From a virus: DNA of 23,627 nucleotides. Under the pieces are notes generated by a model, which saw only the letters and a program-made list of their open reading frames with translations, made no database searches and was not told where the DNA came from. Shown here in pieces: positions 1,973 to 20,223 of the stretch (position 1 is its first letter; each line of letters starts with the position of its first letter). The position numbers and the translations under genes are program-made. The stretch covers positions 1-23,627 of IMG/VR virus record IMGVR_UViG_3300010430_000459. One strand, 5' to 3'.

Positions 1973-2278
1973 ATGGCGGCAACAGTAGCAGCTAAGAATA
2001 GAAAGGTACGGCAGGAGGCGTTACGCGACTTCCTAGCAAATCAGAAGCTTGTTGAGAAAGTTATTGATAATGCTAGAAAAATGGAGGAGCAGGGTGCGTC
2101 TATGGAGGCACAGGAGCTTAACGGGCTAAAGTATGCAACAGACACAAGATTGAAGCTTGTTTCAAAGTACCTGCCAGACTTAAAAGCAATGGAGCTTACC
2201 GGCGATGGTGGTGGTGAAATTGGTATAGATCAGTTACTAACAGTGGAGTTTGTCGGTATTGAAAATAAAACTGCCTGA
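1973..2278 (+). CDS. Terminase small subunit (putative)
   Basis: A 101-residue, largely helical charged protein directly upstream of and overlapping the large terminase, the normal place for the DNA-recognition subunit of the packaging motor. Its C-terminal part contains a KYLPDLKAMELTGDGGGE segment (residues 63-80). That resembles the ending of many phage small terminase proteins, where a helix is followed by a short Gly/Asp-rich linker. P22 gp3 is longer (about 160 residues), so this is a compact type. The ATG is preceded by GGGGTAAGGG (1961-1970), a strong ribosome site. The 3' end overlaps the large subunit by 29 bases. Assignment rests on context plus that C-terminal motif. Confidence 0.72.
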   Translation: MAATVAAKNRKVRQEALRDFLANQKLVEKVIDNARKMEEQGASMEAQELNGLKYATDTRLKLVSKYLPDLKAMELTGDGGGEIGIDQLLTVEFVGIENKTA

Positions 2279-3644
2279 TAGGTTTCAGCCGCTATTTAAG
2301 CCAAAGCGCATTAAAGTGTTTTTTGGTGGTAGAGGTGGAGCTAAAACTGAGAGTTTTATACGAGCCGCTTTAGTCCTAGCAATACGGGACGGAAAGCGGT
2401 TTCTCTGTTTACGCGAATTTATGAACTCTATCGATGACTCGGTGCATGCTGCTATCAAGGGGATTATTGCCAGCGATGGCTTTCAAGGATTCACAGAGCT
2501 AGAGAAGCGGATTGATGGCCCTAATGGTTCAGGCTTCAAGTATGGGCAGCTGGCTAGAAACTTATCGAGCATTAAATCAAAGTTTGATTTTGATGTTGCC
2601 TGGGTTGAGGAGGCTGAGACAATAACAGCTGAGTCTATTGAGACGTTAGAGCCGACAATAAGAAAAGATGGGTCGGAGTTGTGGTATAGCTTTAATCCAG
2701 CCAGAGAAGATGGCGCGGTCTATACAAAGTATGTTTTGCCATACATTGATGAGATTAATCGCACCGGCTTTTATGAGGATGGCGATGTATATGTTTGCAA
2801 GATAGGTATTGAGCATAACCCTTGGGCGCCTGAAAGCCTGTTAAGGGCTGCTGAGAAGATGAAAGCCGAGAACTATGATCTATGGTGCCATGTGTGGGAC
2901 GGACAGCCTAGGCGCGACCTAGATGACGTTATCATTCAACCCAAATGGATTGATGCGGCCATTGATGCTCACAAAACATTAGGATGGCAAGGTGTTGGTG
3001 TGAAGTCGCTAGGCTTTGACCCTGCTGATGCTGGTAGTGATGCAAAAGCTATCGCTATTCGGCATGGTTCGCTGATAACAGAGGCTAAGAGCTGGACAAC
3101 AGGTGATATAACCAGCGCAATACCTAGAGCTTTTGACGCTGCTGAACAGGTTAGAGCGACACATATTGTGTTTGATGCTGATGGCTTAGGTGCTGCGGTA
3201 AAGGTCGGCCTAGATCAACGTGTTGGTAGTGACATGGATATAACGGCTTATCATGGCGGCGCATCTGTTGACTACCCAGCAGAGTTATACGAAGGCAACC
3301 GAAGCAACAAAGATACATTTAAGAATAAACGCGCCCAGTATTATTGGTTCTTAGCTGACAGGTTCCGAAAGACTTATGATGCGGTTGTTAATGGCGTCTA
3401 TTGTGACCCTGACCAGCTTATTAGTATTAGCTCAGACATAGGTGAAGTCAGGCAAATTAAAGCCGAGCTATCCAGAGTGTTAAGAAAGCGCACTAATAAC
3501 AGTCAAATACAGCTAGAATCTAAGCCCGACATGGCTAAACGTGGTGTAAAATCACCTAACTTAGCAGATGCTATTGTTATGTGTTTTGCTAATCCGCCAC
3601 CCAAAACAGTACACAAAAAACAAGAGTTTGCAGCGTTATGGTAG
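2250..3644 (+). CDS. Terminase large subunit (ATPase and nuclease)
   Basis: A 464-residue packaging motor subunit that pumps DNA into the procapsid through the portal and cuts the concatemer. The N-terminal ATPase has a Walker A motif GGRGGAKT (residues 26-33), a Walker B strand DVAWVEE (115-121) and a YSFNP coupling motif (146-150). The C-terminal RNase H-like nuclease shows the expected acidic residues: D257 in FDPAD, D309 in IVFDADG and D440 in NLADA. The architecture fits the Terminase_3 / PBSX-like group. The start is a TTG at 2250 with a GTGGAG purine run just upstream; a second in-frame TTG lies at 2259. The gene overlaps the small subunit by 29 bases and the portal by 7, so translation is probably coupled. 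Confidence 0.95.
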   Translation: MSVLKIKLPDRFQPLFKPKRIKVFFGGRGGAKTESFIRAALVLAIRDGKRFLCLREFMNSIDDSVHAAIKGIIASDGFQGFTELEKRIDGPNGSGFKYGQLARNLSSIKSKFDFDVAWVEEAETITAESIETLEPTIRKDGSELWYSFNPAREDGAVYTKYVLPYIDEINRTGFYEDGDVYVCKIGIEHNPWAPESLLRAAEKMKAENYDLWCHVWDGQPRRDLDDVIIQPKWIDAAIDAHKTLGWQGVGVKSLGFDPADAGSDAKAIAIRHGSLITEAKSWTTGDITSAIPRAFDAAEQVRATHIVFDADGLGAAVKVGLDQRVGSDMDITAYHGGASVDYPAELYEGNRSNKDTFKNKRAQYYWFLADRFRKTYDAVVNGVYCDPDQLISISSDIGEVRQIKAELSRVLRKRTNNSQIQLESKPDMAKRGVKSPNLADAIVMCFANPPPKTVHKKQEFAALW

Positions 3645-5797
3645 ATAACACAGATTACAGCGAAGTCAGTAAACGCCTGTCAATGGCACAAGATGCCGAT
3701 TCTGATATGCGCGACCAGGTATGTGAGACTGACAAGTTTCTCAATGTCAGGGATGGGCAATGGGACACAGGAAACCTGCCTAACATCAATCTACCAAGGT
3801 TAACGCTAGATAAATGCAATCCTATTGTTGATTCTATCGCCTCGCAGATTGAAGAAAATGAATATGCTATACACGTTAAACCTGCTGACGGTGCAAGCAA
3901 CAAGGATGTGGCCAATATTTACAATGGTTTAATACGCAATATCGAGAATGTTAGCAACGCGGTACAAATCTATAACGCGGTATCACGCCGAACTATTGGC
4001 ACAGGCTTGTCAGGCTGTCGGGTTGTTCAGGATTACGTCAGTTCGGACTCATTTGACCAAGATTTGATTGTTAAACCTATCAATGACTTTGCAAATCGTG
4101 TGTGGTTTGGCCCTTATGAGCAGGCAGATGCCAGTGATGCGCCTTACGCTTGGGTGTTTACCGCAATGTCGCCAGATGCCTATGATGAGAAGTACCCAGA
4201 TGGCTCAGGCTTGTCATTGTCTCAAGACATTTGGAATGAGAATTGGTGGAATGCGCGTGAAGTTGTAATTATTGCCGAGTACATTTACAAGGTTTACGAG
4301 TCTGTCGAGCTTGTATTGATGACCGATGGCAAGGTTTACGAGGTAACAGAGGAGTTTGAATCTGTTACTGATGAGCTTGCACAACAGAACATTCAGGAGC
4401 GCAGCCGCAAAAGCAAGAAGGTTTGCCGCATCAAAACTAGAATGATGGACGGCAAGGGCTGGATAACTGGCGAGCAAGACACAGTATTCAAGGATATGCC
4501 GGTAATTCAATCGGCTGCTAACTTCCAAATCATTCAGAATAAGCCTGTTTATTGGGGAGCTATTGATAAGCTGCTAGACCAACAGCGCGTTTACAACTTT
4601 ACATCGTCAAAACAGTTGGCAGAAACAGCGTTAGCACCAACTGAAACAATTATGATGACTGACGATCAGGCGCTTGGTCAGGATTACTCACAACTTAACC
4701 AAAATCCTAAGCCAATAACCACTTATACGCACATGGATGGGCAGCAAACGCCTTATAAGATGGCTGGGCCATCAATTAACCAATCATTAGAGGTTATGAA
4801 GCAATCGGCGGCTAATGACATTGGTGCTAGTGCTGGTCAGTTTAACGCTCAAATGGGCAATAACGCGGGTTTACAGTCTGGTCGCGCCATTGGGATGCAA
4901 ATAGATAAAGGCGATGCAAGCAATCTGAAGTATGTACAGCAGCGAGAGGCTTTCATCTGCTCGGTTGCCAAGGTTATCGTCAACGCAATACCGGCGACCT
5001 ATGATTCAGAGCGTCAAATTCGCATAGTTGGCGAGGATGGCACAGAGGATATGGAGACTATCAACACAGCTGAGTATGACATTCAGACAGGCCAAATGGT
5101 TGAGCTTAATGATTTGTCGCAGGGTCAATACGATGTGACTTGTACAGCTCAAAAGTCATTTAAGAATAAGCAAGACCAAACAGCTTCCGCGTTTATGGAA
5201 TTGGCTCAGGTAATGCCTGGCATTATGGACGTGGGCGCAGATGTTTATATGAATAGCGTTGACGCTCCAGCTATGAAGATGATCGCTGAGCGTTACCGTG
5301 AACAAATGCTACCAACTGGTGTTATACCCCAATCGCAAATGAGTGATGAAGAGATACAGCAGATGCAAGCAGCCGCACAACAGCCTAAAGAACCGACCAT
5401 ACAAGAACAGCTAGGCCAAGCAGAACTTATGAAGGGTCAGGCTGAAATTGGTAAGGCGCAAGCACAGGCCGATAAGATTCAAGTTGAGGCGGCAAGTTTG
5501 CAGGCTAAAACTCAGCTAGAAGCACAGAAGCTAAACCAGTCAGGCCAGAAAATTGAGCTACAGGCAGATGAGCAAGCATTTAGACAGCAGCTTGATATAA
5601 ACCGACAGCTTACCGAGCGCATGAATATGATGGCCGATACCATGAATAAGTTGGTGGAGGCTACAGGCGCGGAGGGTATGGCGATGCCTTCGGCTATGCA
5701 AGCAGTCAATAATCAGGCTCAAATGATTACAGGCGAGCAGAATGATATGGGCGCTATGACTAATGAGCAGTTGATGGAGGTTGTGCGCAATGGATAA
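3638..5797 (+). CDS. P22-type portal protein
   Basis: A 719-residue homologue of P22 gp1 (725 residues), which forms the dodecameric ring at one capsid vertex through which DNA is packaged and ejected. The N-terminal part (SKRLSMAQDADSDMR, then a QWDTGNLPNINLPRLTLDKC-like region near residues 38-60) is characteristic of the P22 portal family. The central wing/stem region is followed by a C-terminal Gln/Ala-rich helical stretch, about residues 580-680. This corresponds to the long alpha-helical barrel that extends into the capsid in P22. The ATG lies 7 bases inside the terminase gene end. The gene ends 8 bases inside the next gene, which uses a GGAGG at 5776-5780 within the portal coding sequence. 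Confidence 0.93.
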   Translation: MVDNTDYSEVSKRLSMAQDADSDMRDQVCETDKFLNVRDGQWDTGNLPNINLPRLTLDKCNPIVDSIASQIEENEYAIHVKPADGASNKDVANIYNGLIRNIENVSNAVQIYNAVSRRTIGTGLSGCRVVQDYVSSDSFDQDLIVKPINDFANRVWFGPYEQADASDAPYAWVFTAMSPDAYDEKYPDGSGLSLSQDIWNENWWNAREVVIIAEYIYKVYESVELVLMTDGKVYEVTEEFESVTDELAQQNIQERSRKSKKVCRIKTRMMDGKGWITGEQDTVFKDMPVIQSAANFQIIQNKPVYWGAIDKLLDQQRVYNFTSSKQLAETALAPTETIMMTDDQALGQDYSQLNQNPKPITTYTHMDGQQTPYKMAGPSINQSLEVMKQSAANDIGASAGQFNAQMGNNAGLQSGRAIGMQIDKGDASNLKYVQQREAFICSVAKVIVNAIPATYDSERQIRIVGEDGTEDMETINTAEYDIQTGQMVELNDLSQGQYDVTCTAQKSFKNKQDQTASAFMELAQVMPGIMDVGADVYMNSVDAPAMKMIAERYREQMLPTGVIPQSQMSDEEIQQMQAAAQQPKEPTIQEQLGQAELMKGQAEIGKAQAQADKIQVEAASLQAKTQLEAQKLNQSGQKIELQADEQAFRQQLDINRQLTERMNMMADTMNKLVEATGAEGMAMPSAMQAVNNQAQMITGEQNDMGAMTNEQLMEVVRNG

Positions 5798-7346
5798 AGC
5801 GCAAGCGGCCAACGAATTAAAGCGGCGCGGTGTAACCTTAGAGGATATGCAAAACTATTTTCTAGCGGTTGCCGAGCCTGTTGCAGCTATGGGTTCGGGC
5901 ATTGTTGCCGAGCCTTTAGCTGGATTTGCTGGTTTAGCTGCGACTCCTTTCGGTTCAGATGCGGCGGCTAACGCTGTTAATTATTACCGCGATAAGCTGA
6001 CCTACTCACCAAGGTCAGAGGCGGGTCAGTCTGGCATGGCTGCTGTTGGTGAGGCGATGGCCCCAATAGGTGAGGCAATGGATTATGCGGCTAGTGGTGC
6101 TGGTGATTACATCTACGACAAAACAGGAAGCCCGGCATTAGCGGCGGCAGCGTACTCAGCACCAACAGCAGCACTTGAGCTATTAGGTTTAAAAGGCGTT
6201 AATCAGTTAAGCAAATCAGGCAAGCTAGGCCAGCCGTTAGAGTTTGGCGACATAGGCAGCGGTGGAGTGGGCAACAAGCAACGCGGCATCTTTGCAGGCG
6301 TAAAGGCTAAGGGTGCAGATTTAAAGCGTCAGGCAGCAGCAGAGGAGCTTGCGGGTCGCGGTATTGGACGCGACCAAATATGGCAGGAAACAGGCTGGTT
6401 TAATGACGTTGATGGCAGTTGGAAGTTTGAGATTGATGATAGCCAGGCAAGACTTAGGTCGCTAGATGGCAGTTCTGATAGTCATATGGACTGGGTAGAT
6501 GAGGCAGAAAGCAGAGAGCGCGGCATTCCTTTATCGTCAGGTGTTGAGCACAGTGAGATGTTCAACAGCTACCCATCAATGCAGAAAGCTCGCCTAAGTA
6601 TTGGTCGAACTGGCGGCAGTCATGGTATGTATGACGCTCAAGCTGACACGGTTGGCATTAAGGATCCGTTTGATTACCCCCAAGGCGAGGCCAGATCAAC
6701 ACTACTTCACGAAACGCAACACGCTATACAAGAGCGGGAGGGGTTTGCCAAAGGTGGTAGCGCGAGTGAGTTTGAAGTTGATATGCAGGCTTATGCCGAA
6801 CTTAACAAGATGGGCTTTGCTGAAATGGATGGATTCCAAAAGCAAATGTTTAAAGACTTGAGAGGTAAGTACGGCAAAAATAGGTCGGCCTTTGATTTTT
6901 ATGAGCGCCTAGCAGGTGAAGCCGAAGCCCGCAATGTACAAACCCGCATGGACTACACACCAGAACAGCGCCGAGCAGCAGCACCTTGGACAACGCTAGA
7001 TGTGCCAGAGGGTGAGCTTATTGTAAGAGGTAACAGCAAGGGGCCGATGATGAGTTCGGGTAATGATATTAAAAGCGCCATAAGGGAGAGTGAGGGGGCT
7101 ATAACATTGGATAAAGTTATTGTTCCTGAGTCTGTCAGAGATAAAGGGCTGGGCACTAAGTTTATGAAGGACTTGATAGGTCGAGCCGACCAAAGCGGCA
7201 AGAGGATTGAGCTAACACCAAGCGCTGATTTTGGCGGCAATAAAAACAGGCTGGTTAAGTTTTATAAGAGGCTTGGTTTTGTAGAGAATAAAGGGAAAAA
7301 CAGGGATTACGAGATAAGCGAATCTATGTACAGGCTGCCTGAATAA
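5790..7346 (+). CDS. Polyvalent virion-associated protein: LPD23-like, HExxH metallopeptidase-like and GNAT domains
   Basis: A 518-residue multidomain protein inserted between portal and scaffold, where P22 has nothing. Residues 25-143 are Gly/Ala-rich with an MGSGIVAEPLAG start and a PTAALELLGLKG end, and this stretch is clearly similar to residues 68-187 of the ejection protein at 16755. Residues 188-217 (GRGIGRDQIWQETGWF, then DGSWKFEIDD) match the LPD23 domain of phage polyvalent proteins. Residues 303-323 contain HETQH (307-311), an HExxH zincin motif, with a possible third ligand in AGEAEAR (375-381). Residues 436-518 form a GNAT-like domain with R450-DKGLG and FYKRLGFV. I chose ATG 5790 because GGAGG at 5776-5780 gives 9-base spacing; an upstream TTG at 5781 has no room for a ribosome site. 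Injection into the host is inferred. Confidence 0.85.
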   Translation: MDKAQAANELKRRGVTLEDMQNYFLAVAEPVAAMGSGIVAEPLAGFAGLAATPFGSDAAANAVNYYRDKLTYSPRSEAGQSGMAAVGEAMAPIGEAMDYAASGAGDYIYDKTGSPALAAAAYSAPTAALELLGLKGVNQLSKSGKLGQPLEFGDIGSGGVGNKQRGIFAGVKAKGADLKRQAAAEELAGRGIGRDQIWQETGWFNDVDGSWKFEIDDSQARLRSLDGSSDSHMDWVDEAESRERGIPLSSGVEHSEMFNSYPSMQKARLSIGRTGGSHGMYDAQADTVGIKDPFDYPQGEARSTLLHETQHAIQEREGFAKGGSASEFEVDMQAYAELNKMGFAEMDGFQKQMFKDLRGKYGKNRSAFDFYERLAGEAEARNVQTRMDYTPEQRRAAAPWTTLDVPEGELIVRGNSKGPMMSSGNDIKSAIRESEGAITLDKVIVPESVRDKGLGTKFMKDLIGRADQSGKRIELTPSADFGGNKNRLVKFYKRLGFVENKGKNRDYEISESMYRLPE

Positions 7347-7474: not shown

Positions 7475-8296
7475 ATGAGTGAAGAGCTGGAAGTGGGCGA
7501 AAGCCTTGAAGTCGTTAACGATGTGGAAGTGCTGGATGCCAAGCCAGAAAGCGGTGAGGTTGGTGATTCTACAGAGGTAATGACTGGTGACTCAGCAGCA
7601 CCTATTGAGGCGGAACAAGAAGAAAAGCCGCAGGTTAGTGACGGAGTTCAAAAAGTTATCAACGCCAAGCATCGAAAGATGAAAGAGGCAGAGGAAAAGG
7701 CAGAGGCGCTGCAAAAGCGAATTGATGAGATTGAAGCATCGAAAGCGCAGGCGCAGACTGAAATAGCCGATGTTCCAACCTTGCCCGATGCGTTTGATGA
7801 TAACTATGAGGCTCAACTTGCTAATCGAGAGTCTGTAATACGACAGAACGCAAAGGCCGAGGCGCTTCGAGAGATACGCCAAAACCAAGAGCAGAGTCGT
7901 TTGCAGTCGGAGCAGCAGGCACAACAGGAAGCGTTTAACGCGAAACTTACTACCTTTGCAGAGAATGGTGAAAAGGTCGGCTTGTCTATTGAAGCAATGA
8001 CAGGCAACCGCGAAACCATCCAAAACTTAGGCGTAAATGACGCAATAGTTCTTAATCTGTTTAGTCTCAGCGATGGGCCGCAGGTTATGGATTATCTGGC
8101 TAAAAATCCTGATACAGCTTTAGATTTTGCGGGTAAATCGCAGCTAGAGGCTGGAATTATGATTTCAGACATACGCTCCAAAGTTACGCCATCCGCTCCA
8201 AAGCTTACTAAAGCGCCACCACCGCCACATACGGCGACCGGCGCGGCTGCACAACCAGCAGAAAGCCCACTATTGAAGGGCGCAACCTTCGACTAA
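7475..8296 (+). CDS. Scaffolding protein (P22 gp8-like)
   Basis: A 273-residue, highly charged, helix-rich protein directly before the coat gene. In P22-like phages this is the place of the scaffold (gp8, 303 residues), which directs coat assembly and then leaves the procapsid. Residues 1-55 are very acidic. Residues 60-165 have long Glu/Lys/Gln/Ala-rich coiled-coil character. Residues about 245-273 form a Pro/Ala-rich tail ending KGATFD. The ATG is preceded by AAGGCGGG (7460-7467). Sequence alone shows no enzymatic motif, as expected for a scaffold. The call rests on gene order, composition and length. Confidence 0.85.
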   Translation: MSEELEVGESLEVVNDVEVLDAKPESGEVGDSTEVMTGDSAAPIEAEQEEKPQVSDGVQKVINAKHRKMKEAEEKAEALQKRIDEIEASKAQAQTEIADVPTLPDAFDDNYEAQLANRESVIRQNAKAEALREIRQNQEQSRLQSEQQAQQEAFNAKLTTFAENGEKVGLSIEAMTGNRETIQNLGVNDAIVLNLFSLSDGPQVMDYLAKNPDTALDFAGKSQLEAGIMISDIRSKVTPSAPKLTKAPPPPHTATGAAAQPAESPLLKGATFD

Positions 8297-8312: not shown

Positions 8313-9569
8313 ATGACTGATACAACCAAGAACGTAACAACTAAAATCGCCAAGAAGATTCTGGCATCCTTTGAGAGCCAGCGTGTATTGTCCAAAAATG
8401 TCAATACTCAGATGCTAGACGGCAAGTTTAACCCTTCAACGGGTTCTAAGACTTTGTTTAAGCGTCCAACCGACTTTAGTTCTGTCCGTACCGCTACAGG
8501 TGATGTGACCGGCGTTAACAGCCCGATCATCGTGGGTAATGCCGAAGGTAATGTACAAGATTACATTACTGTCAAAACTGATTTTGATGAAGCTGTTGAG
8601 GCTTTGGAGTTTGACGGTGACGACAATTCATTCTGGGATAATATGGCGCGCCGTATTACCGTTGACCTAGAGAAAGATTTTGCTCAGTTTATGATGCGTA
8701 ATGCTGCATTGCAGGCTGGTACTGTCGGCACTCCTGTTTCCTCTTGGGATGCTATTGCCGAAGCTGGTGCGATTATGGAGTCTACCGGCGTACCAGCTGG
8801 TGAGCTATGTTATGGCGTTAACCCTTTCACTCAGCGTAAGCTGGCTGGTGATGTTCGTAGCTTAGGCGGCGAAACAGGCGCAATGACTGCAAACCAGAAG
8901 GCTGTTATCAGTGATAACTTTGCCGGTATGCGCGTAATGACTGCAAATACCTTGCCTCGCTATACCACTTCGGCTGGTGCAGATCGTGCTGGTACTTTGG
9001 TGACTAACCCGAATGTAACCTATGAAGCTGCCAAAGACAGTATGTATCAGACTTTGTCCGTTACTGGCTTTCAAGCTGATCTGGTTATTAAAGCTGGTGA
9101 GCGTATATCCATTGCAGGCCGCAACCGTCTTAACTTGTCTACACGCGACCCTATCCTAGATGACGAAGGCAATGTGGTGGTGTTTAGTGCCACTGTAACT
9201 GCTGACGTTACTCTTAACGGTTCTGGTGCTGGTAGTATTGTTATTACTGGCCCTGCAATCTTTGAATCCGCCGGTGCTTATAATACTGTTGATAGCGCGC
9301 CTATTGCCGGTGATGTTATTACCCTGTCGGCTGCTGAGTCTGTAATTATCCAGCCCAATATGTTCTGGCATAAAGATGCTTTCTCGATTGGTTCTGTACC
9401 AATGAAGCGTTTATTTAGTACTGATACCTTCGCTAAAACTAGCGACAACCTACAGTTGCGCGTCAGTAAATACTCAGATGGTGATGCAAACGGTCAGACT
9501 GTACGTGTTGATTTACGTCCAGCCTTTGCCGCTTTAAATCCTTTCTTCGCTGGTCATGGCCACGGCTAA
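8313..9569 (+). CDS. P22-type major coat protein
   Basis: A 418-residue homologue of P22 gp5 (430 residues), the HK97-fold major capsid protein. The N-terminal region, which runs into FKRPTDFSSVRTATGDVTG near residues 50-68, and the segment ITVKTDFDEAVEAL (88-101) are typical of the family. The middle region around residues 285-345 is a Thr/Val/Gly-rich beta section corresponding to the coat insertion or accessory domain. The C-terminus contains NMFWHKDAFSIGSVPM, the family's conserved ending strand region, and finishes with a short Gly/His tail (GHGHG). It follows the scaffold by 16 bases and is closed by a strong intrinsic terminator, consistent with very high expression. Codon use is pyrimidine-ending and smoother than that of its neighbours. 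Confidence 0.93.
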   Translation: MTDTTKNVTTKIAKKILASFESQRVLSKNVNTQMLDGKFNPSTGSKTLFKRPTDFSSVRTATGDVTGVNSPIIVGNAEGNVQDYITVKTDFDEAVEALEFDGDDNSFWDNMARRITVDLEKDFAQFMMRNAALQAGTVGTPVSSWDAIAEAGAIMESTGVPAGELCYGVNPFTQRKLAGDVRSLGGETGAMTANQKAVISDNFAGMRVMTANTLPRYTTSAGADRAGTLVTNPNVTYEAAKDSMYQTLSVTGFQADLVIKAGERISIAGRNRLNLSTRDPILDDEGNVVVFSATVTADVTLNGSGAGSIVITGPAIFESAGAYNTVDSAPIAGDVITLSAAESVIIQPNMFWHKDAFSIGSVPMKRLFSTDTFAKTSDNLQLRVSKYSDGDANGQTVRVDLRPAFAALNPFFAGHGHG

Positions 9570-12578: not shown

Positions 12579-12837
12579 TTTTATACTTGCATCCCCTGAT
12601 TTTAGATACCCAATAGTTGATGAGTCAGGCAAGGCAACGGAAGATTTACAGCGGTTTTTTGCTGCGGCTGTTGAGTTGATTAACGCCATAAACCCCACTA
12701 TTGGAGCGGGTAGCCCAGAAGGTGTATTATCAGCAGGGCCACAAGCAATCTACGTGGACAGTTCCGCGCCAGTTGGTGAGGGGATTTACATCAAACAGTC
12801 GGGGACAGGTAACACAGGATGGGTGAAGCGATCATAA
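12571..12837 (+). CDS. Small tail-associated protein with SPEGV...GNTGW motif
   Basis: An 88-residue protein that starts with TTG at 12571, with GGAG at 12556-12559 upstream, and overlaps gp10 by 8 bases. Residues 9-40 are helical. Residues 48-85 have the pattern GSPEGV...IYV...GIYIKQSGTGNTGW, which recurs in phage fibre- and tail-linked proteins as a short beta module. It occupies the position of the P22 needle gp26 (233 residues) but is much shorter and lacks the trimeric coiled-coil. It could be a reduced plug or an adaptor, but its function is unproven. Its 3' end overlaps the oxygenase gene by 19 bases. Confidence 0.75.
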   Translation: MANFILASPDFRYPIVDESGKATEDLQRFFAAAVELINAINPTIGAGSPEGVLSAGPQAIYVDSSAPVGEGIYIKQSGTGNTGWVKRS

Positions 12838-13394
12838 TTGACGACTTTATAGGCGGGTTTGAGGCTTATAGAGACACACTTGATAGTCATATCTTTAGCG
12901 GTGTACAGTCGCCTGTTGATGGCGTTTTTTATAAGGGTGTATCTGCTGATATACCGCAACACATAGCCGACAACATTAAAGCCAATCTTGATCTCTATTA
13001 TGAGAATGTGGAGATTAAGCATCAATTTTTACGCATCAGCCAAGAAGGTATATTTGCACCATTGCAGGCACATAACGATGCCGATATGGGTACGCATAGC
13101 TGCATGTTGTACCTTAATCGCAGAGAAGATTGCACCGGCGGCACAAGTTTTATCAGTCACGTTGATGAGGGTATGCCATACGGCCCTGAAAACGACGAAC
13201 AATATAAGGTTTGGCAGGATGATTTTAATACTGAGTCTCGCTGGAATATTGACGAAATTGCCACAATGAAACCCAACAGGGCGGTCATGTTTGATGCCGA
13301 CAGGATGCACAGGTCTGAGCCGGTTGGTGGTTTTGGACGCACAACAAAGGACGCCAGACTTGTTTTGGTGACGTTTTTCGATGCTGATTCGTAA
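12819..13394 (+). CDS. 2-oxoglutarate/Fe(II)-dependent oxygenase-like protein
   Basis: A 191-residue protein with the double-stranded beta-helix signature of Fe(II)/2-oxoglutarate oxygenases. H85-N-D87 in PLQAHNDADMG is the HxD metal pair, H164 in FDADRMHRSEP is the distal histidine, and R174 or R180 (in ARLVLVTFF) can bind 2-oxoglutarate. GGTSFI (107-112) fits the strand after the first pair, as in prolyl-hydroxylase-like members. Such enzymes hydroxylate proteins, nucleic acids or small molecules; the substrate here is unknown. The ATG sits about 9 bases after AGG at 12807. The gene overlaps its neighbours by 19 and 14 bases, so it is expressed with tail genes and a GNAT enzyme. Confidence 0.87.
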   Translation: MGEAIIIDDFIGGFEAYRDTLDSHIFSGVQSPVDGVFYKGVSADIPQHIADNIKANLDLYYENVEIKHQFLRISQEGIFAPLQAHNDADMGTHSCMLYLNRREDCTGGTSFISHVDEGMPYGPENDEQYKVWQDDFNTESRWNIDEIATMKPNRAVMFDADRMHRSEPVGGFGRTTKDARLVLVTFFDADS

Positions 13395-13830
13395 AGGGAT
13401 AAGCGCTGATATTCCCCGGTGTGTTGAGATGGCTGCGGATTTCCACAAAATAGCCTACGGATTAATGGGTATAGAGTTTTGCCCAGACTCAACGGCAAGG
13501 GCTTTTGAAATGTGCCTAGGCCATGAGTTGCTTAGTATTGCGGAGCATGATGGCGTAGTTATTGGTATGGTGGCAGGCGTTAAAGCTCCGATGATTATGA
13601 ATAATGATATTTTGGTTGGCGCAGAGTTGGCCTGGTGGGTAGAGCCTGATTACCGCAAAACTTCGGCAGGTTTAAAACTATTAAGATTTGCCGAAAAACT
13701 GGCAAAAGATGCAGGCGTTAAAATGTGGTCGATGATGTTGCTAGAGTCTAGCGAGCCTGAAAAGGTGGCTAAGATTTATGCTAAAATGGGCTATGAACCA
13801 GCAGAACGAACTTTTTTAAAGGTGTTTTAA
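13381..13830 (+). CDS. GNAT-family N-acetyltransferase
   Basis: A 149-residue single-domain GNAT protein, a typical length for the family, which transfers an acetyl group from acetyl-CoA to an amine. It begins with the usual IRKGISADIPRCVEM pattern (residues 3-17). Motif A is the AELAWWVEPDYRKTSAGLKLL stretch (81-101). There the acetyl-CoA pyrophosphate loop reads R92-KTSAG, with Ser where the middle Gly is commonest, as in several phage members. Motif B is IYAKMGYEP (132-140). Its start overlaps the oxygenase by 14 bases and it precedes the ejection protein block by 2 bases. Substrate unknown: virion proteins or a host target are both possible. Confidence 0.87.
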   Translation: MLIRKGISADIPRCVEMAADFHKIAYGLMGIEFCPDSTARAFEMCLGHELLSIAEHDGVVIGMVAGVKAPMIMNNDILVGAELAWWVEPDYRKTSAGLKLLRFAEKLAKDAGVKMWSMMLLESSEPEKVAKIYAKMGYEPAERTFLKVF

Positions 13831-13832
13831 TT

Positions 13833-14564
13833 ATGGCGGTCATAACTTCGGCGGTTATCGGTGCGGCGGCGGTTGCCAACTCATACGGCCAAGGCAAAAA
13901 ACAAGAGAAGTCGGCAAAGAAAGCTGCTGAGGGTCAAGAGGCTTCGGCTATTGAGTCGGCCCAATTCTTACAGCAGCAAGGCATTGACGGCGAGCGATAC
14001 ATTCGAGAGGCGGCTATTGAAGCTGCGGCAACGGCTGGGCAGATACCAGAGCAAGCGGTGGAGCCTCTATTACGTATTGCTGGGTTAGGTAAATCAGCTT
14101 TTGACATGGCTTCGCGCGATATTCTGGGTGGCAATGTAACAAGCCAAAACGCGCTATCGCGTAACATTGCAGGCTCATCTTTACAGGGTTCGCTTGGTGT
14201 TCCAACTGGTGACGGTGTTAGTGACCCAGTTAGAGCAGAGTTAGCGAGGCAGTCAGGGTTATCAGGCCAACTTGCAGGCGAGCAGTTTGGCAACGGTTTG
14301 TTTGATTTGGGTAGACAGGGTGTTTTGGCGGCTGGTGATATTGCACAGATTGAAAAGCGCGGCGCTGGTAGGATGGGCGATCTAGCAACACAACAGGCTA
14401 GTGGTCGTGCTGCCCAATTAGTGGGTGCTGCGGCTCCGGCGGCAAGCATGATACAAGGTGCTGGTGAGGCTAGACTATTAAGCGATTTTGCTGGCAATAG
14501 ACTTAACACACAAACAACAGAACAGCTTGCAGGTTTGGCTGGTAGATACTTAGGAGGTAACTAA
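13833..14564 (+). CDS. Putative ejection / DNA transfer protein (P22 gp7 position)
   Basis: A 243-residue Ala/Gly/Gln-rich protein at the place and length of P22 gp7 (229 residues), one of three proteins ejected with the DNA to build a conduit across the cell envelope. The first 18 residues (AVITSAVIGAAAVANSYG) are hydrophobic and small-residue-rich, suited to membrane insertion, followed by a basic Lys/Gln/Ala coiled stretch (20-35). The rest is amphipathic helix with many Gly/Ala residues. No enzymatic motif is seen. The gene ends with TAATG overlap to the next. The call rests on context and composition rather than a diagnostic motif. Confidence 0.7.
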   Translation: MAVITSAVIGAAAVANSYGQGKKQEKSAKKAAEGQEASAIESAQFLQQQGIDGERYIREAAIEAAATAGQIPEQAVEPLLRIAGLGKSAFDMASRDILGGNVTSQNALSRNIAGSSLQGSLGVPTGDGVSDPVRAELARQSGLSGQLAGEQFGNGLFDLGRQGVLAAGDIAQIEKRGAGRMGDLATQQASGRAAQLVGAAAPAASMIQGAGEARLLSDFAGNRLNTQTTEQLAGLAGRYLGGN

Positions 14565-15550
14565 TGCCGACACAATACGGGCCGGTTAGCAGCGGCAACA
14601 GGTACAACTCAGGCGGTTCAACATACTCAAACCCGCTTGGCTCAACCGGCACTAATTACACGCCTAGAGCTAACAGCACACCTAGACAACTTGAAAGCGC
14701 GGGAACTTTCAACGGTATAGATTTCGGGATGATGCCAAACCAGAACGCCAACGCTCAGAGTGTTGACGACATAATCAGGCAGTCACAGCCGGTAGCCGAG
14801 GACATACTGCGGTCAGGTACAGATTCAGCTTTGAATTTCTCAAGAGATTCACAACAGAACGTTGAAAATTCATTATCGCAATTCCTAAACCCGCAAGCAC
14901 TAGAAGAACAAGCTGCTCTATTAGGCGCTAGAGGTCAAGGGGCGCAACGTAACGCCATTGCCAATATTCCTGTTAGTGCTGCCCAGGCGGAAGCTGACAG
15001 GCGCCAGAGTGTAGGCTTGCAGCGTAGAGCGTCGGCGGGTGGTGAGCTTGGCGCCGGCTCAACTATGTTGGCGGCTGGACAGATGGCAGGGCAGCAACAA
15101 ACTAATCGCGTAGCTAATCGAGTTGAGCAGCTAGAGCAGCTTGCCGGCATTGATCGTCAATTGATGGGCGACATATCAAGAAACCGAGAGTCTGAAATGT
15201 CTAGGCAAGCAGCTTTACAAGCTGGGCTTGGTGGTCAGATTGCAAACGTGGGTATGGGATTGGCTGGGCCTGCTGTTGAGTCAATGCAGACACAGGCTGA
15301 GATTGCAGGATTGCGAGGCATAGCTTCGGCAAACCGCTCGGCATCTAACGCATCATCCATTGCCAACCTTGCTGGCCAAGTGTTTACGCCGGGTAATATT
15401 CAGGGGATGGCTAATTTCTTTACGCCGGCGCCAACGCCAACATATACAAACCCTAATTACAGCCCGACATCAAACATAATTACCGGTGGACCATCAGGCG
15501 GTAATATAAACTACAGCCCAGTGCCACAAATTAATTTCGGAGCCCAATAA
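14564..15550 (+). CDS. Putative internal virion / ejection protein
   Basis: A 328-residue low-complexity protein. Residues 1-60 are Ser/Thr/Gly/Asn-rich and flexible. Residues about 65-270 are Gln/Ala/Arg/Gly-rich and helical with repeated polar heptads, including LQRRASAGGELGAGSTMLAAG near 152-172 and VEQLEQLAGIDRQLMGDI near 186-203. Residues 285-328 are Pro/Asn/Tyr-rich and disordered. This composition and its place between gp7-like and gp20-like genes fit a protein carried inside the capsid. The start shares one base with the upstream stop (TAATG at 14562-14566), and the stop does the same with the next gene. Confidence 0.68.
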   Translation: MPTQYGPVSSGNRYNSGGSTYSNPLGSTGTNYTPRANSTPRQLESAGTFNGIDFGMMPNQNANAQSVDDIIRQSQPVAEDILRSGTDSALNFSRDSQQNVENSLSQFLNPQALEEQAALLGARGQGAQRNAIANIPVSAAQAEADRRQSVGLQRRASAGGELGAGSTMLAAGQMAGQQQTNRVANRVEQLEQLAGIDRQLMGDISRNRESEMSRQAALQAGLGGQIANVGMGLAGPAVESMQTQAEIAGLRGIASANRSASNASSIANLAGQVFTPGNIQGMANFFTPAPTPTYTNPNYSPTSNIITGGPSGGNINYSPVPQINFGAQ

Positions 15551-16755
15551 TGGCTATATCACAAGCGGTTGCAAACGCAATACTAGGGCAAAGAGCGCCG
15601 GATATTCTAGGTTCCTTTGAGCAAGGTCAGGCGGTAGCAAGGGGGCGCGAAGAACGCAGTCGGGCTAGGCAGATACAAGAGCTTTCAGGGCAATCGTATA
15701 AAGGTGATGCTGAGGCTTTTGGTGAGCTGCAAGGAATAGCCCCAGAGGTGGCGCTAGAGTTACAGAATAAATTGAACATTAAGGATAAGGGTGGTCTGGA
15801 TAGGCTTTATACGGACGCAAAAACAGCGTTATCAATCTATGAAAACTATGGTGTTGAGGGCGTTATTAGCTTTGGCGAGAACAGAATACAGGGTTTAAAG
15901 TCGATGTTTGCTGATACTCAAGATACAGAGCGGGTATTAAACTTCTTTAAAACCGGTAACATTGAAGAAGGCGTGGCAAACCTAAAGGCCACTATTAGCG
16001 CATTTGACCAAGCTAAGAGCATGGGGCCAACTGGTGCAATGCGAGAAAGGAACTCGCTACTAAATGATTTGAATAGTGATGACCCTAATGTTCGCAGATC
16101 GGCAGAAGTTGCACTTAAATTAACAGCGGCCCCTGTTGGCTCTGCGGATATAACTACAGCAACAACGGAGGGTTTATCTGAACAGGTCGGTGACTCGCAG
16201 GCAACTATTAAAGAGAGGGCAAAATTTGGGGAACTAACAGGGACGAGTCGAGCCAATACTATTGATAAAGGTTATGAGTCGATACAGCTTATAGACAAAG
16301 GGCTTAGCAATATTGATAGAGCTATTCAGGCTGTAAGGGATGGGGCCAGCACTGGAAAGATAGCTTCCAAATTCCCTAGTATAGCAAGGGCTGCTGTTGA
16401 GCTTGAGCAAATAGCCGACTCTATGGCTCTTGATGTTATCGGTAGTGTGACCTTGGGCGCAATTTCTGAGGCAGAGCTAGACCTAGCCAGACAAGTGGCT
16501 TTACCAGTGGGCTTGAAAGGTGAGGATTTAATACAACATTTAATGGCAAGGAAATCCGCCCAAATTAAACTCAGAGGATACCTTGAGGAGCAAGTTGACT
16601 TCCTAGATCAAGGCGGTACGATTCCGCAATTCCTTAGAAGGAAGAAGGCGCAGCGAGAACAAGCAGCCACACAACAGGGAGACCCACAAACCCCACCTAC
16701 ACAGCAATCACAGCCTCAGCGAATGAGATTTGACGCAAAAGGGAATATTTTATAA
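15550..16755 (+). CDS. Ejection / DNA transfer protein (P22 gp20 position)
   Basis: A 401-residue helical protein at the position of P22 gp20 (471 residues). Its N-terminus (ISQAVANAILGQRAPDILGSF, residues 3-23, then many Arg/Glu/Gln) is a recurring opening in phage internal proteins that sit around the ejected DNA. The long middle (30-330) is amphipathic helix. The C-terminus (360-401) is Gln/Pro/Arg-rich and probably disordered. GGAG at 15539-15542 and a TAATG overlap set the start. It ends with another TAATG overlap to the large ejection protein, so these three genes should be made in fixed proportion. Confidence 0.75.
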   Translation: MAISQAVANAILGQRAPDILGSFEQGQAVARGREERSRARQIQELSGQSYKGDAEAFGELQGIAPEVALELQNKLNIKDKGGLDRLYTDAKTALSIYENYGVEGVISFGENRIQGLKSMFADTQDTERVLNFFKTGNIEEGVANLKATISAFDQAKSMGPTGAMRERNSLLNDLNSDDPNVRRSAEVALKLTAAPVGSADITTATTEGLSEQVGDSQATIKERAKFGELTGTSRANTIDKGYESIQLIDKGLSNIDRAIQAVRDGASTGKIASKFPSIARAAVELEQIADSMALDVIGSVTLGAISEAELDLARQVALPVGLKGEDLIQHLMARKSAQIKLRGYLEEQVDFLDQGGTIPQFLRRKKAQREQAATQQGDPQTPPTQQSQPQRMRFDAKGNIL

Positions 16756-18917
16756 TGCCGATAGAAGCAGAATTACCAGACGGTCGAGTCCTAGAGTTTC
16801 CAGACGGAACAGATCAAAGCGTTATTCAATCAACCGTTAAGCGGGTACTGGGGGCAAGTGATGACAGTGGAATGGGTACAAGTGGCAATGCTGGCGATAA
16901 TAATATGGCTCCTATGGTAGCGGAGCCGTCATTTGGTCGGGAAATGCTGTCAGGTTTAGAGCTTGCTGGAACAATGGGAAGTGCTGCGATTATGGAGCCT
17001 GTCGCTGGTATTGCTGGTGCGTTTACTGGGGCATTTAAGGGGCCAGAGAAAGGCGCGGAAATGGTCAGGGATGTGCAAAGCATGGCTTATGAGCCAAGAA
17101 TGCCTGAGACTAAACGAGCACTTGAGGGAATAAGCAAAACCCCAGTGGTGCAGGGTTTGGCGTCTGGTATGCAATACTTAGAAGAGAAAGGCGGTCAGGC
17201 GGGTGAGGCTGTTGGCGGGTTATTTGGCACTCCAGGCTTAGGCTATGCCATAGGCGCAGCCGGCCCAACGGCAATACTTGAGGCGCTAGGGCTTAAAGGT
17301 GCTTCTAGCCTTAGAGGGTCAAAGAAGATAACAGGCATCAGTGACGAAGCTATTGCCCGAATGGAGAAACAAGGCGTAGAAATAGATGACCTATCAGATA
17401 AGGGTATAGAGAAGCTACAAGCAATGGAGTTTGAGCGAGCAGCCGAAGAGATGCAAAGGTTGCGGCTTTTTGAGCGTGAAAATATACCAACAATGCAAAG
17501 CCGTATCTCACAGAAAAATACAGATTTTTTATCTGAAAGGGCGGGATTTAGGGCTGACACACCAGAGGGCCAACAAATAAGAGATTTAGCTGTTGATGAG
17601 TCGGCAGGATTTCAGACTGCTATCAATAATTATAAAAACGCTTTTGGTGACTCTGACAATGTTGGTGATGCTGTTAAGAGCGCATTGACAGCAAGGCAAA
17701 CAGGGTTAAGGTCTGATGTTAAAAGCGCATATGATGGATTGAATGAGGTAACAAGCGGTGCAAGTATTCCTCTTGTTGGTAGCAAGGTTTACGAGGCTTT
17801 GAGTGAAGAAAGAGTGCAAGGCATGGCTGGTCGGTTAAATGACGTTGAACGCGGCCAAATTAATGATGTGCTTGTTGAATTTGGTATTGATACAGACCCG
17901 GCGAGAGTTGAAAAATGGATAGAAAGCAGAAAGGGCAAAAGCGGCGCAATTTCTTCAAAATCCGAAATAACACCACTATCTATTAATAACTCAGAGGATA
18001 TGTCACAGGCTTTATCTGCGATGATGGGTTTTGATGCCTCCCCAGCATTGAAGGGTGTTTCTGGCAGAATTAAGAAATCCATTGACGAGGAGTTAATTCA
18101 GTTTGACGAGCTTAATGGTGACGGTTTGGCGGCTGACGTTTCTATTGCTTCAAAGAGGGCTAGAGCTGCCTATAAAAAGTTGAAAGATTTTGAGAATACC
18201 GATGCTTTAATAGGTAAATTAATCGGCTCTAAAAAGCGATCAGATGAGCCTTTAATATACGCCTCGGAAGTGGCAAAGAGGATAACGGGCGGCGGTCGTG
18301 ATGGCACGATAGAAAATATAGACAGGCTAACCAAAAGCCTTGTTAAAAGTGATTCTGGTGTTGAGGCTTTGGGTAATATGCAATCTGCTATCGCAGCCCA
18401 ATTATTAGATAAATCAGTAAGTAGGACACCACTAGCCAACGGCACAAGGCAATGGCTGGCTGGTAACTATGTAGATAACTTCGATGCTCTTGAAAAGTCA
18501 GGAAAGTTATCAGCCATATTTAGAAATAATCAGGAGGGCTTAGCAGGTTTGCGGAGATTGCGGGAAGCCAGCGAGCTAACAAAAGCGCCAAGTAATGTAG
18601 CCAAAAGCTCAGGCACAGGCGATGACAACCTTAATAATATAATGAAAGTGTTAAAGGGTACTAAGGGTTTGATACCGGCAGCGTTTCAGGCGGGTGGCGC
18701 TGCGGTTACTGGTATTCCTATGGCTGGTGAGGCAATATCAGGAATGATTCCCAAGTCTAAGCAGAAGGCGGCTAAGAAATCAGCAAAAAGAGCTTTAAAC
18801 GCAAGGCCCGATGAAGCCCAGCAAATACGACAACTAACGAGACTTTACCCAAATCTGACGGCAGTAATAGCTCCTTCACTTATAAATAAAACGCAACAAA
18901 AAGAAGATAAGGAATAG
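16755..18917 (+). CDS. Large ejection / internal virion protein (P22 gp16 position)
   Basis: A 720-residue protein at the place of P22 gp16 (609 residues), the ejected protein needed early in DNA entry. It opens with PIEAELPDGRVLEFPDGT (residues 2-19), a short beta-like module seen at the start of many phage internal virion proteins. Residues 68-187 form a Gly/Ala-rich, partly hydrophobic module, from MGSAAIMEPVAG to PTAILEALGLKG, shared with the polyvalent protein at 5790. The remainder is long charged helix, ending in a strongly basic stretch KSKQKAAKKSAKRA (about 667-680). No peptidoglycan-hydrolase motif is evident. The start is a TAATG overlap with the upstream gene; AAGGGAA at 16738-16744 is the likely ribosome site. 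Confidence 0.8.
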   Translation: MPIEAELPDGRVLEFPDGTDQSVIQSTVKRVLGASDDSGMGTSGNAGDNNMAPMVAEPSFGREMLSGLELAGTMGSAAIMEPVAGIAGAFTGAFKGPEKGAEMVRDVQSMAYEPRMPETKRALEGISKTPVVQGLASGMQYLEEKGGQAGEAVGGLFGTPGLGYAIGAAGPTAILEALGLKGASSLRGSKKITGISDEAIARMEKQGVEIDDLSDKGIEKLQAMEFERAAEEMQRLRLFERENIPTMQSRISQKNTDFLSERAGFRADTPEGQQIRDLAVDESAGFQTAINNYKNAFGDSDNVGDAVKSALTARQTGLRSDVKSAYDGLNEVTSGASIPLVGSKVYEALSEERVQGMAGRLNDVERGQINDVLVEFGIDTDPARVEKWIESRKGKSGAISSKSEITPLSINNSEDMSQALSAMMGFDASPALKGVSGRIKKSIDEELIQFDELNGDGLAADVSIASKRARAAYKKLKDFENTDALIGKLIGSKKRSDEPLIYASEVAKRITGGGRDGTIENIDRLTKSLVKSDSGVEALGNMQSAIAAQLLDKSVSRTPLANGTRQWLAGNYVDNFDALEKSGKLSAIFRNNQEGLAGLRRLREASELTKAPSNVAKSSGTGDDNLNNIMKVLKGTKGLIPAAFQAGGAAVTGIPMAGEAISGMIPKSKQKAAKKSAKRALNARPDEAQQIRQLTRLYPNLTAVIAPSLINKTQQKEDKE

Positions 18918-18921
18918 TAGA

Positions 18922-20223
18922 ATGTCCAGATTTATAAACCCAGTGCCACAATACCTTAACAGCGCAGGCGACCCAATAGTTTCGGGTCAAATGTTTTTCT
19001 ATGAAGTTGGCTCAACTACGCCGAAAGATGTATATCTTGATGCTGCTTTGACTATCCCAGCCGCAAACCCTGTATTACTCAACGCTGATGGCCGTATGCC
19101 GGACACTTATCTGCTTGGCTCATATCGCACCATACTAAGCGAGCCGTCCAGTGGTGAACAATGGGAGCGGGATAATGTGGGTTCAGAGTTTACAGATGGT
19201 TATGGCTCAGAATGGAATAGTACAGTCACATATAATATACCTGATGTAGTTTTGTTTGATGGTGTTTATTATGTATGCCAAACAAACAACAATGTTAATA
19301 ATCAGCCAAGCTCTACGTCTAGTGAGTGGAGCGTTTCAAATCTTGGCGCTATTGGCTCGAACCTGATAGATAACGCACAATTTAAGGTTAGGCAGCGCGG
19401 CAATAATGACGGAGGGGCCGGACTTGGCGGTGTATTTATCGACAGATGGATTACACGACCACTAAGTCAAACAGGCGGCGCAACACAGATAAGTGTTCCT
19501 ACTATTGGAAATTTTCCTGTTGATTATATGCGTGTTGCGGTGTCAGGCCACACGTCATTTTGGTATATAAGGCAGAATTTTTTAACGGATAAAATACAGA
19601 CAGGAAAAGATTACACTTACGCCGTAAAAACTAATTTAATGTCCTCAGCAATAAAAATGAGGGCTAGATTAAGGGGTCGCAGTATAAGCGCAGGAGTATT
19701 TTATACACTGGGCGAGTCTGATATTCAGCTTGATTCTTATGGGCAGTACACCGTTACATTTAAAAATGTAGTATCGCCCGCACCACTCACAGCAGAAGAT
19801 GATTATATACAGATAGAACTTTCAGGACAGCAAGCAGACGGAGGCGCTGATTTTGTTCTGCCTGATGGCTCTTACAGGTTTGAGAGTTTTAAACTAGAAG
19901 AAGGCAATAGTTTTACTGGTAACACTCCATCAGCTTATTCTAGTGATGAGCTTGAATGCAGAAAATGGTATAGAGGCATAGATAGTGAATTTGTCGCGAC
20001 TGTTGCAAGTGCTTCAGCAACAACAGCAACAAGGAGAACAAATTTGTTTTTTGACCCCCCAATGTATTTCCCGCCCACAGTAACAATAGGCTCGATAACT
20101 AACGGGGCGCTTTCATCCATCAGCACAACAAGTAAGAATGGGTGCTATGTAACAATAACAGCCTCAAGCTCAAGTGATAACGTTTTTGTTGATGGCTATA
20201 CAGCAACTTGCGAGATTTTGTAA
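18922..20223 (+). CDS. Tail fibre / receptor-binding protein
   Basis: A 433-residue fibre. Residues 1-88 (SRFINPVPQYLNSAGDP, GQMFFYEVGSTTPKDVYLD, NPVLLNADGRMPD) are the conserved podovirus tailspike/fibre head-binding domain that docks to the tail hub. Residues 98-138 (W...Y...DVVLFDGVYYVCQ...W) resemble a small type 5/12 carbohydrate-binding module. Residues about 148-340, beginning NLIDNAQFKVRQRG, are a jelly-roll module found in phage fibres. The end contains ELECRKWYRG (343-352), a common motif before the fibre tip. No hydrolase site is visible, so it probably binds rather than cuts the receptor. AAGGA at 18909-18913 precedes the ATG. Confidence 0.88.
   Translation: MSRFINPVPQYLNSAGDPIVSGQMFFYEVGSTTPKDVYLDAALTIPAANPVLLNADGRMPDTYLLGSYRTILSEPSSGEQWERDNVGSEFTDGYGSEWNSTVTYNIPDVVLFDGVYYVCQTNNNVNNQPSSTSSEWSVSNLGAIGSNLIDNAQFKVRQRGNNDGGAGLGGVFIDRWITRPLSQTGGATQISVPTIGNFPVDYMRVAVSGHTSFWYIRQNFLTDKIQTGKDYTYAVKTNLMSSAIKMRARLRGRSISAGVFYTLGESDIQLDSYGQYTVTFKNVVSPAPLTAEDDYIQIELSGQQADGGADFVLPDGSYRFESFKLEEGNSFTGNTPSAYSSDELECRKWYRGIDSEFVATVASASATTATRRTNLFFDPPMYFPPTVTIGSITNGALSSISTTSKNGCYVTITASSSSDNVFVDGYTATCEIL

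What the first reader, a model, noticed from the sequence alone, without database searches (positions are those of the whole stretch)
5862..6218. A shared ~110-residue module links the polyvalent protein to the large ejection protein
Seen: residues 25-143 here and residues 68-187 of the protein at 16755 (bases 16956-17315) align without large gaps. They share MGS...EP.AG.AG near the start, Y.PR in the middle and PTA.LE.LGLKG at the end. Two genes 11 kb apart with otherwise unrelated remainders share only this Gly/Ala-rich, partly hydrophobic part. Inference: it is a portable signal for packaging inside the capsid or for ejection across the envelope, which would make the polyvalent protein an injected cargo.
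Basis: partly seen in the sequence, partly recalled or inferred. Interest (0 to 1): 0.78.

Follow-up and report, generated by a model that had tools for sequence, protein, structure and literature searches.

The report
Ejection-protein module carrying swappable phage effectors
In a group of short-tailed phages, a conserved 110-residue piece of the protein that the phage ejects into its host is also attached to interchangeable enzymes, which suggests a built-in delivery tag for injecting host-modifying proteins, though packaging has not been tested.

Summary
Residues 25-143 of the 518-aa protein at 5790-7346 and residues 68-187 of the 720-aa protein at 16755-18917 share one helical module (score 119; no shuffle above 83). 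A profile built only from other phages' ejection proteins finds both copies (E 1.9e-36 and 8.9e-17). The module is the N-terminal region of P22 gp16-type ejection proteins, corresponding in position to P22 gp16 residues about 68-172, although P22's own sequence there is too diverged to detect. It is the best-conserved part of these proteins.

The stronger finding is outside the window. The module is joined, without the gp16 body, to different effector domains: LPD23+HExxH+GNAT (this window), ADP-ribosyltransferase (L007, L066, L075), LPD23+HExxH+ParB-like (L008), LPD23+HExxH+ART (L071). L007 and L008 are 88% identical in DNA through portal and module, share nothing across the effector, and are again 88% identical from the scaffold gene on. 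These genes nearly always sit by terminase, portal or scaffold.

Best reading: a delivery tag carrying exchangeable injected effectors. Packaging itself is inferred. A caution: a P22 gp16 fragment ending at residue 171 was not seen in particles. New variant of a known kind.

The parts
5790..7346 (+). module-effector fusion gene (518 aa; GGAGG at 5776-5780; overlaps the portal stop)
5862..6218 (+). shared module, copy 1; all-helical in the AF2 model (pLDDT 80)
6219..6312 (+). linker ending in RGIFAGVKAK; DNA similarity to L007 stops at 6312 (aa 174) = swap junction
6288..6455 (+). LPD23, large polyvalent protein associated domain (E 3.9e-20)
6708..6722 (+). HETQH (HExxH) zincin-like motif; GEAEAR follows at 6915-6932
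7023..7289 (+). GNAT acetyltransferase domain (Acetyltransf_10, E 2.8e-5, above cut-off)
16755..18917 (+). gp16-position ejection protein (720 aa), third of the ejection genes
16755..16860 (+). leader of the ejection protein (LPDGRVLEFPDGT), resembling P22 gp16 ANGKTFNFPDGT by eye; absent from the fusion
16956..17315 (+). shared module, copy 2
3638..5797 (+). P22-like portal, immediately upstream of the fusion
   Evidence: E 7.4e-114
7475..8296 (+). head scaffolding protein, immediately downstream of the fusion
   Evidence: E 1.8e-23
14564..15550 (+). probable ejection protein 1 (position only)
   Evidence: position compared with P22
15550..16755 (+). probable ejection protein 2 (gp20 position; matches an 'endolysin' PHROG, 3e-10)

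Best explanation
The module is the conserved N-terminal helical region of gp16-type ejection proteins, reused as a delivery tag. In this phage and relatives a second late gene beside portal/scaffold fuses the tag to enzymes of the polyvalent-protein repertoire in place of the gp16 body. Most likely mechanism: the tag lets the fusion co-assemble with scaffold and/or the ejection-protein cluster in the procapsid; on infection it follows gp16 through the tail and conduit to the inner membrane, bringing the C-terminal enzymes (zincin, GNAT; ART or ParB-like in relatives) to the new host's cytoplasm. The zincin may then release the effector from the tag. Shown: homology of the module, its identity as the gp16 N-terminal region, its fusion to different effectors, a cassette-like swap at the DNA level, and gene position. 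Inferred: packaging, ejection, cytoplasmic delivery, auto-cleavage and host targets.
For: Homology beyond chance. 69 distinct module proteins (some truncated) came from module scans of viral contigs, genome contigs and named phages; those that could be classed are either gp16-type ejection proteins or module-effector fusions. Eight ejection carriers match P22 gp16 at E 6e-64 to 2.5e-28, some along nearly their whole length, placing the module at gp16 residues about 68-172. The module is the best-conserved part of the ejection proteins (2.37 vs 1.52 bits per column). Fusions carry LPD23, HExxH, ART-PolyVal (E 1e-10 in L007), ParB-like and GNAT domains. L007/L008: 88% DNA identity to the end of the module linker, none across the effector (1,446 vs 1,676 bp), 88% again at scaffold. 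Fusion and gp16-type copies coexist in the window and in the L007 contig. Most fusion genes lie portal-scaffold or TerL-portal. Published: P22 ejection proteins need scaffold to enter procapsids, gp16 is ejected and membrane-associated, and Sf6 gp16 is incorporated into P22 (PMC4992974, PMC10883804, PMC8402733).
Against: No virion proteomics for any module-effector fusion. A P22 gene 16 fragment ending at residue 171 gave no visible band in particles (PMC8402733), though instability or gel overlap could hide it and the P22 region is diverged. The module profile does not detect P22 gp16 itself (E 0.33; hhalign 0.2%). Fusions mostly lack the N-terminal leader of gp16-type proteins (L066 has one). 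Hydrophobicity is borderline for membrane helices. The fusion gene is dispensable in some lineages: remnants in L079 and L102.
Confidence: 0.62

Rival explanations
1. The module is a membrane-anchoring or conduit domain, not a packaging tag: it places the effector at the inner membrane, either after ejection (with packaging set by other parts) or in the producing cell, where the fusion acts late, for example against rival phages.
For: Two moderately hydrophobic helical stretches; gp16 is membrane-associated and its C-terminal 134 residues are not needed for that (PMC10883804); the P22 fragment ending at 171 was not seen in particles.
Against: Does not by itself explain why the genes keep to the portal/scaffold/terminase cluster; published ART and zincin polyvalent proteins are predicted to be packaged (PMC5512222).
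Confidence: 0.2
2. The fusion is a hybrid left by recombination between an ejection-protein gene and an effector gene; the module has no role of its own there.
For: Ejection-protein genes are highly mosaic (PMC8954989, PMC10883804); remnants exist (L079, L102).
Against: The module is kept 94-97% identical while the effector is replaced; fusions occur beside three portal families (phrog_156, phrog_1216, phrog_12082) and fall in several places of the tree, although one origin is not rejected.
Confidence: 0.1
3. The similarity reflects a Gly/Ala-rich hydrophobic composition rather than descent.
For: Composition is biased; BLASTP with composition adjustment gives only E 0.006.
Against: Shuffles preserving composition never approach the score; the independent ejection-only profile gives 1.9e-36 and 8.9e-17 with ordered conserved positions (EP.AG.AG, TY.PR, GSP, P.A).
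Confidence: 0.01

Closest known systems
P22 gp16-type ejection (E-) proteins
   Same: The module is the N-terminal region of this protein class; the window's 16755 protein is in the gp16 position.
   Different: The fusion at 5790 has no gp16 body; it has LPD23, a zincin motif and GNAT. P22 gp16 itself has diverged in this region.
Polyvalent proteins (Iyer et al. 2017, PMC5512222)
   Same: LPD23, HExxH zincin, GNAT, ART and ParB-like domains in multidomain proteins of phages with portal-terminase packaging.
   Different: They are short (263-662 aa) and carry a gp16-derived module; my searches of that paper's text for 'ejection' and 'P22' found no mention.
MuF polymorphic toxins of temperate phages (PMC5576092)
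   Same: Constant N-terminal virion-linked domain, variable C-terminal effector (ARTs included), gene beside the portal.
   Different: No MuF domain; the carrier is an ejection-protein module; no immunity gene established.
T4 capsid targeting sequence (IPs) and P1 DarB targeting
   Same: N-terminal portable signal shared by head-internal proteins that are injected.
   Different: The T4 signal is about 10 residues; here it is a ~110-residue conserved helical domain from the conduit protein.
LPD23-zincin proteins of Pseudomonas phages AF, F116, H66, LKA5
   Same: Homologous LPD23 + zincin core (about 31-34% identity).
   Different: In AF it lies inside a giant protein by internal virion protein genes; no module found in AF.

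Membership tests
gp16-type ejection protein (16755 protein) | Third ejection gene, just before tailspike/fibre | tested here: met
gp16-type ejection protein (16755 protein) | Body homologous to P22 gp16 | tested here: inconclusive
   Not a direct phmmer hit; an iterated profile seeded with P22 gp16 matches residues 360-613, but such profiles can drift
gp16-type ejection protein (5790 protein) | gp16 body | tested here: not met
   C-terminal part is LPD23/HExxH/GNAT
Polyvalent protein | Several disparate effector domains in one chain | tested here: met
   LPD23, HExxH motif, GNAT
Polyvalent protein | Encoded with portal-terminase packaging genes | tested here: met
   Between portal and scaffold
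Polyvalent protein | Transferred into the host with the DNA | not testable with these tools
   Needs virion proteomics or an injection assay
MuF polymorphic toxin | MuF domain | tested here: not met
   No MuF hit in Pfam
MuF polymorphic toxin | Constant N-terminus with variable C-terminus | tested here: met
MuF polymorphic toxin | Downstream immunity gene | not tested
   L007 has a 142-aa ORF downstream without Pfam or PHROG hit; function unknown
T4-type capsid targeting sequence | Short propeptide cut by a prohead protease | not tested
   Not searched for; P22-like heads are not known to use a prohead protease (general knowledge)

The most novel reading that the evidence does not exclude
P22-like and other podoviruses possess a polymorphic injected-effector system: the N-terminal module of gp16 is a self-sufficient delivery domain, and phages exchange host-modifying enzymes behind it as cassettes next to the portal gene.
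Probability: 0.5. Interest if true: 0.78.

Novelty: new variant of a known kind. Interest (0 to 1): 0.64.

Why it matters
How podovirus ejection proteins are recruited into the head and threaded out is open, and I found no mapped signal for gp16. A natural set of fusions that keep about 110 residues while swapping everything else points to a candidate signal and makes it directly testable. It would also predict which uncharacterised phage proteins are injected, and offers a possible tag for delivering proteins with P22-like particles.

Tried and rejected
Compositional artefact: rejected. Module as a generic part of LPD23 proteins: rejected; AF, EBPR podovirus 3 and ct2G2228 have LPD23/zincin matches but no module. 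Known fold: no PDB match to the module model; in BFVD only one unnamed 703-aa viral protein matched well. Full ejection-protein model too poor to use (pLDDT 57). Fusions as one clade: the tree suggests several origins, but one origin is not rejected (AU p 0.064). Module copied from the phage's own ejection gene: not favoured by the tree but not rejected (AU p 0.25). Bacterial genomes: 369 genomes of the Gilvimarinus class gave only the already known hit; the genome-contig scan gave two. Alignment A2 was too divergent for pattern scans. Single-sequence scans from L003, L095 and L066 added nothing new.

Full report
OBSERVATION. The window is a 23.6-kb virus contig with a P22-like late region: terminase (2250-3644), portal (3638-5797), scaffold (7475-8296), coat (8313-9569), gp4-like and Hc3 proteins, three genes in the ejection-protein positions (14564, 15550, 16755) and a fibre gene. 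The 518-aa protein at 5790 and the 720-aa protein at 16755 share one segment and nothing else. The segment scores 119 by Smith-Waterman, while composition-preserving and local-window shuffles average 37-42 with a maximum of 83.

INDEPENDENT CONFIRMATION. Named phages carry the module in the last ejection gene before the tailspike: Pseudoalteromonas phage H6/1 (41% identity to the 5790 copy, annotated 'putative ejection protein') and Vibrio phage 1.275.O (39%). A weaker, partial match is in the corresponding gene of Pseudomonas phage AH02. Scans of viral contigs raised this to 69 distinct proteins, some truncated. A profile made only from 18 modules outside the window's family recovers both window copies at 1.9e-36 and 8.9e-17.

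WHAT THE MODULE IS. Most carriers are gp16-type ejection proteins. P22 gp16 hits eight of them directly (6e-64 to 2.5e-28), in several cases along nearly the whole protein, so the module corresponds in position to gp16 residues about 68-172. P22's own sequence there is too diverged for the module profile to find. Within the ejection proteins the module is the best-conserved part (2.37 against 1.52 bits per column). AlphaFold2 models it as a set of helices (pLDDT 80) without a PDB counterpart.

THE FUSIONS. A smaller set has the module without the gp16 body, fused to effector domains. This window: LPD23, HExxH with GEAEAR, GNAT. L008: LPD23, HExxH, ParB-like, with a GNAT as a separate downstream ORF. 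L007: ART-PolyVal, E 1e-10. L071: LPD23, HExxH, ART-like; L076 and L077: HExxH with an LPD23-like start; L066, L072, L075: ART-like; L067: a short domain with a YHGT motif; L064, L073: unknown. L095 carries module plus an LPD23-like stretch in a phage with another portal family. Gene positions are portal-scaffold (window, L007, L008, L066, L069, L095), TerL-portal (L067, L071, L072, L075-L077), TerS-TerL (L064) or after portal (L068); L073 is an exception.

CASSETTE EXCHANGE. L007 and L008 are 88% identical in DNA through portal and module, then unrelated for 1,446 versus 1,676 bp, then 88% identical again from just before the scaffold gene. The same junction, at residue 174, separates the window from L007. 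The module stays 94-97% identical among these while the effector changes. In L079 and L102 only remnants of the gene remain between TerL and portal, so it is an accessory gene. The window and the L007 contig each carry one fusion and one gp16-type copy. The module tree places fusions in several groups, but a single origin is not rejected (p 0.064).

FUNCTION. Published work on P22 shows that ejection proteins enter procapsids in a scaffold-dependent, portal-independent way, that they leave the virion at infection, that gp16 is membrane-associated, and that Sf6 gp16, though very diverged, enters P22 particles (PMC4992974, PMC10883804, PMC8402733). T4 and P1 have N-terminal signals that put other proteins in the head, and MuF toxins show constant carriers with variable effectors by the portal gene. 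The most economical account is that the module is the delivery part of gp16, reused to carry enzymes. This is inference: I found no virion proteomics for any fusion. The published amber at codon 172 of P22 gene 16 leaves a fragment that ends about where the module ends, and no such band was seen in particles; this could mean that the module alone is not sufficient, that the fragment is unstable, or that it was hidden.

NOVELTY. Injected effectors, polyvalent proteins and constant-carrier/variable-effector designs are known. A gp16-derived carrier with exchangeable effectors was not found in the papers I searched, though the library lacks most subscription journals. I therefore rate it a new variant of a known kind.

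Noticed in passing
window 12819-13391 and 13381-13830: A weak 2OG-Fe(II) oxygenase-like match and a stand-alone GNAT gene lie between Hc3 and the ejection genes; similar ORFs occur at the same place in L007 and L008.
   Followed up: no
window 15550-16755: The gp20-position protein matches a PHROG labelled endolysin (phrog_26675, 3e-10), possibly a peptidoglycan-related part in the ejection apparatus.
   Followed up: no
window 18922-20223: Tail fibre-like protein with a weak carbohydrate-binding module 5/12 match below its cut-off.
   Followed up: no
L079 1131-1400; L102 2779-2943: Remnants of the fusion gene between TerL and portal: L079 joins the start of the module to a tail like that of the ART fusions, L102 keeps only the first ~44 residues.
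   Followed up: partly
L069 5184-6460: Same fusion as L066 but with the reading frame broken inside the module; assembly error or a decayed gene.
   Followed up: no
L073 3635-5050 and L095 5397-7121: The C-terminal part of the L073 fusion and a protein next to the L095 fusion look alike by eye (both with a GG.xF...WAS stretch), with no Pfam hit for L073; perhaps an undescribed polyvalent domain.
   Followed up: no
gp16-type ejection proteins in L026, L091, L106, L074 and P22 (L110): At least two kinds of N-terminal leader precede the constant module: a strand-type LPDGxxxxFPDGT (window, P22; a variant in L074) and a helical ALxxADAAGD type (L026, L091, L106).
   Followed up: no
L016 8934-10766 and L061 9707-11773: Insertions of about 30 or more residues inside the module.
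   Followed up: no
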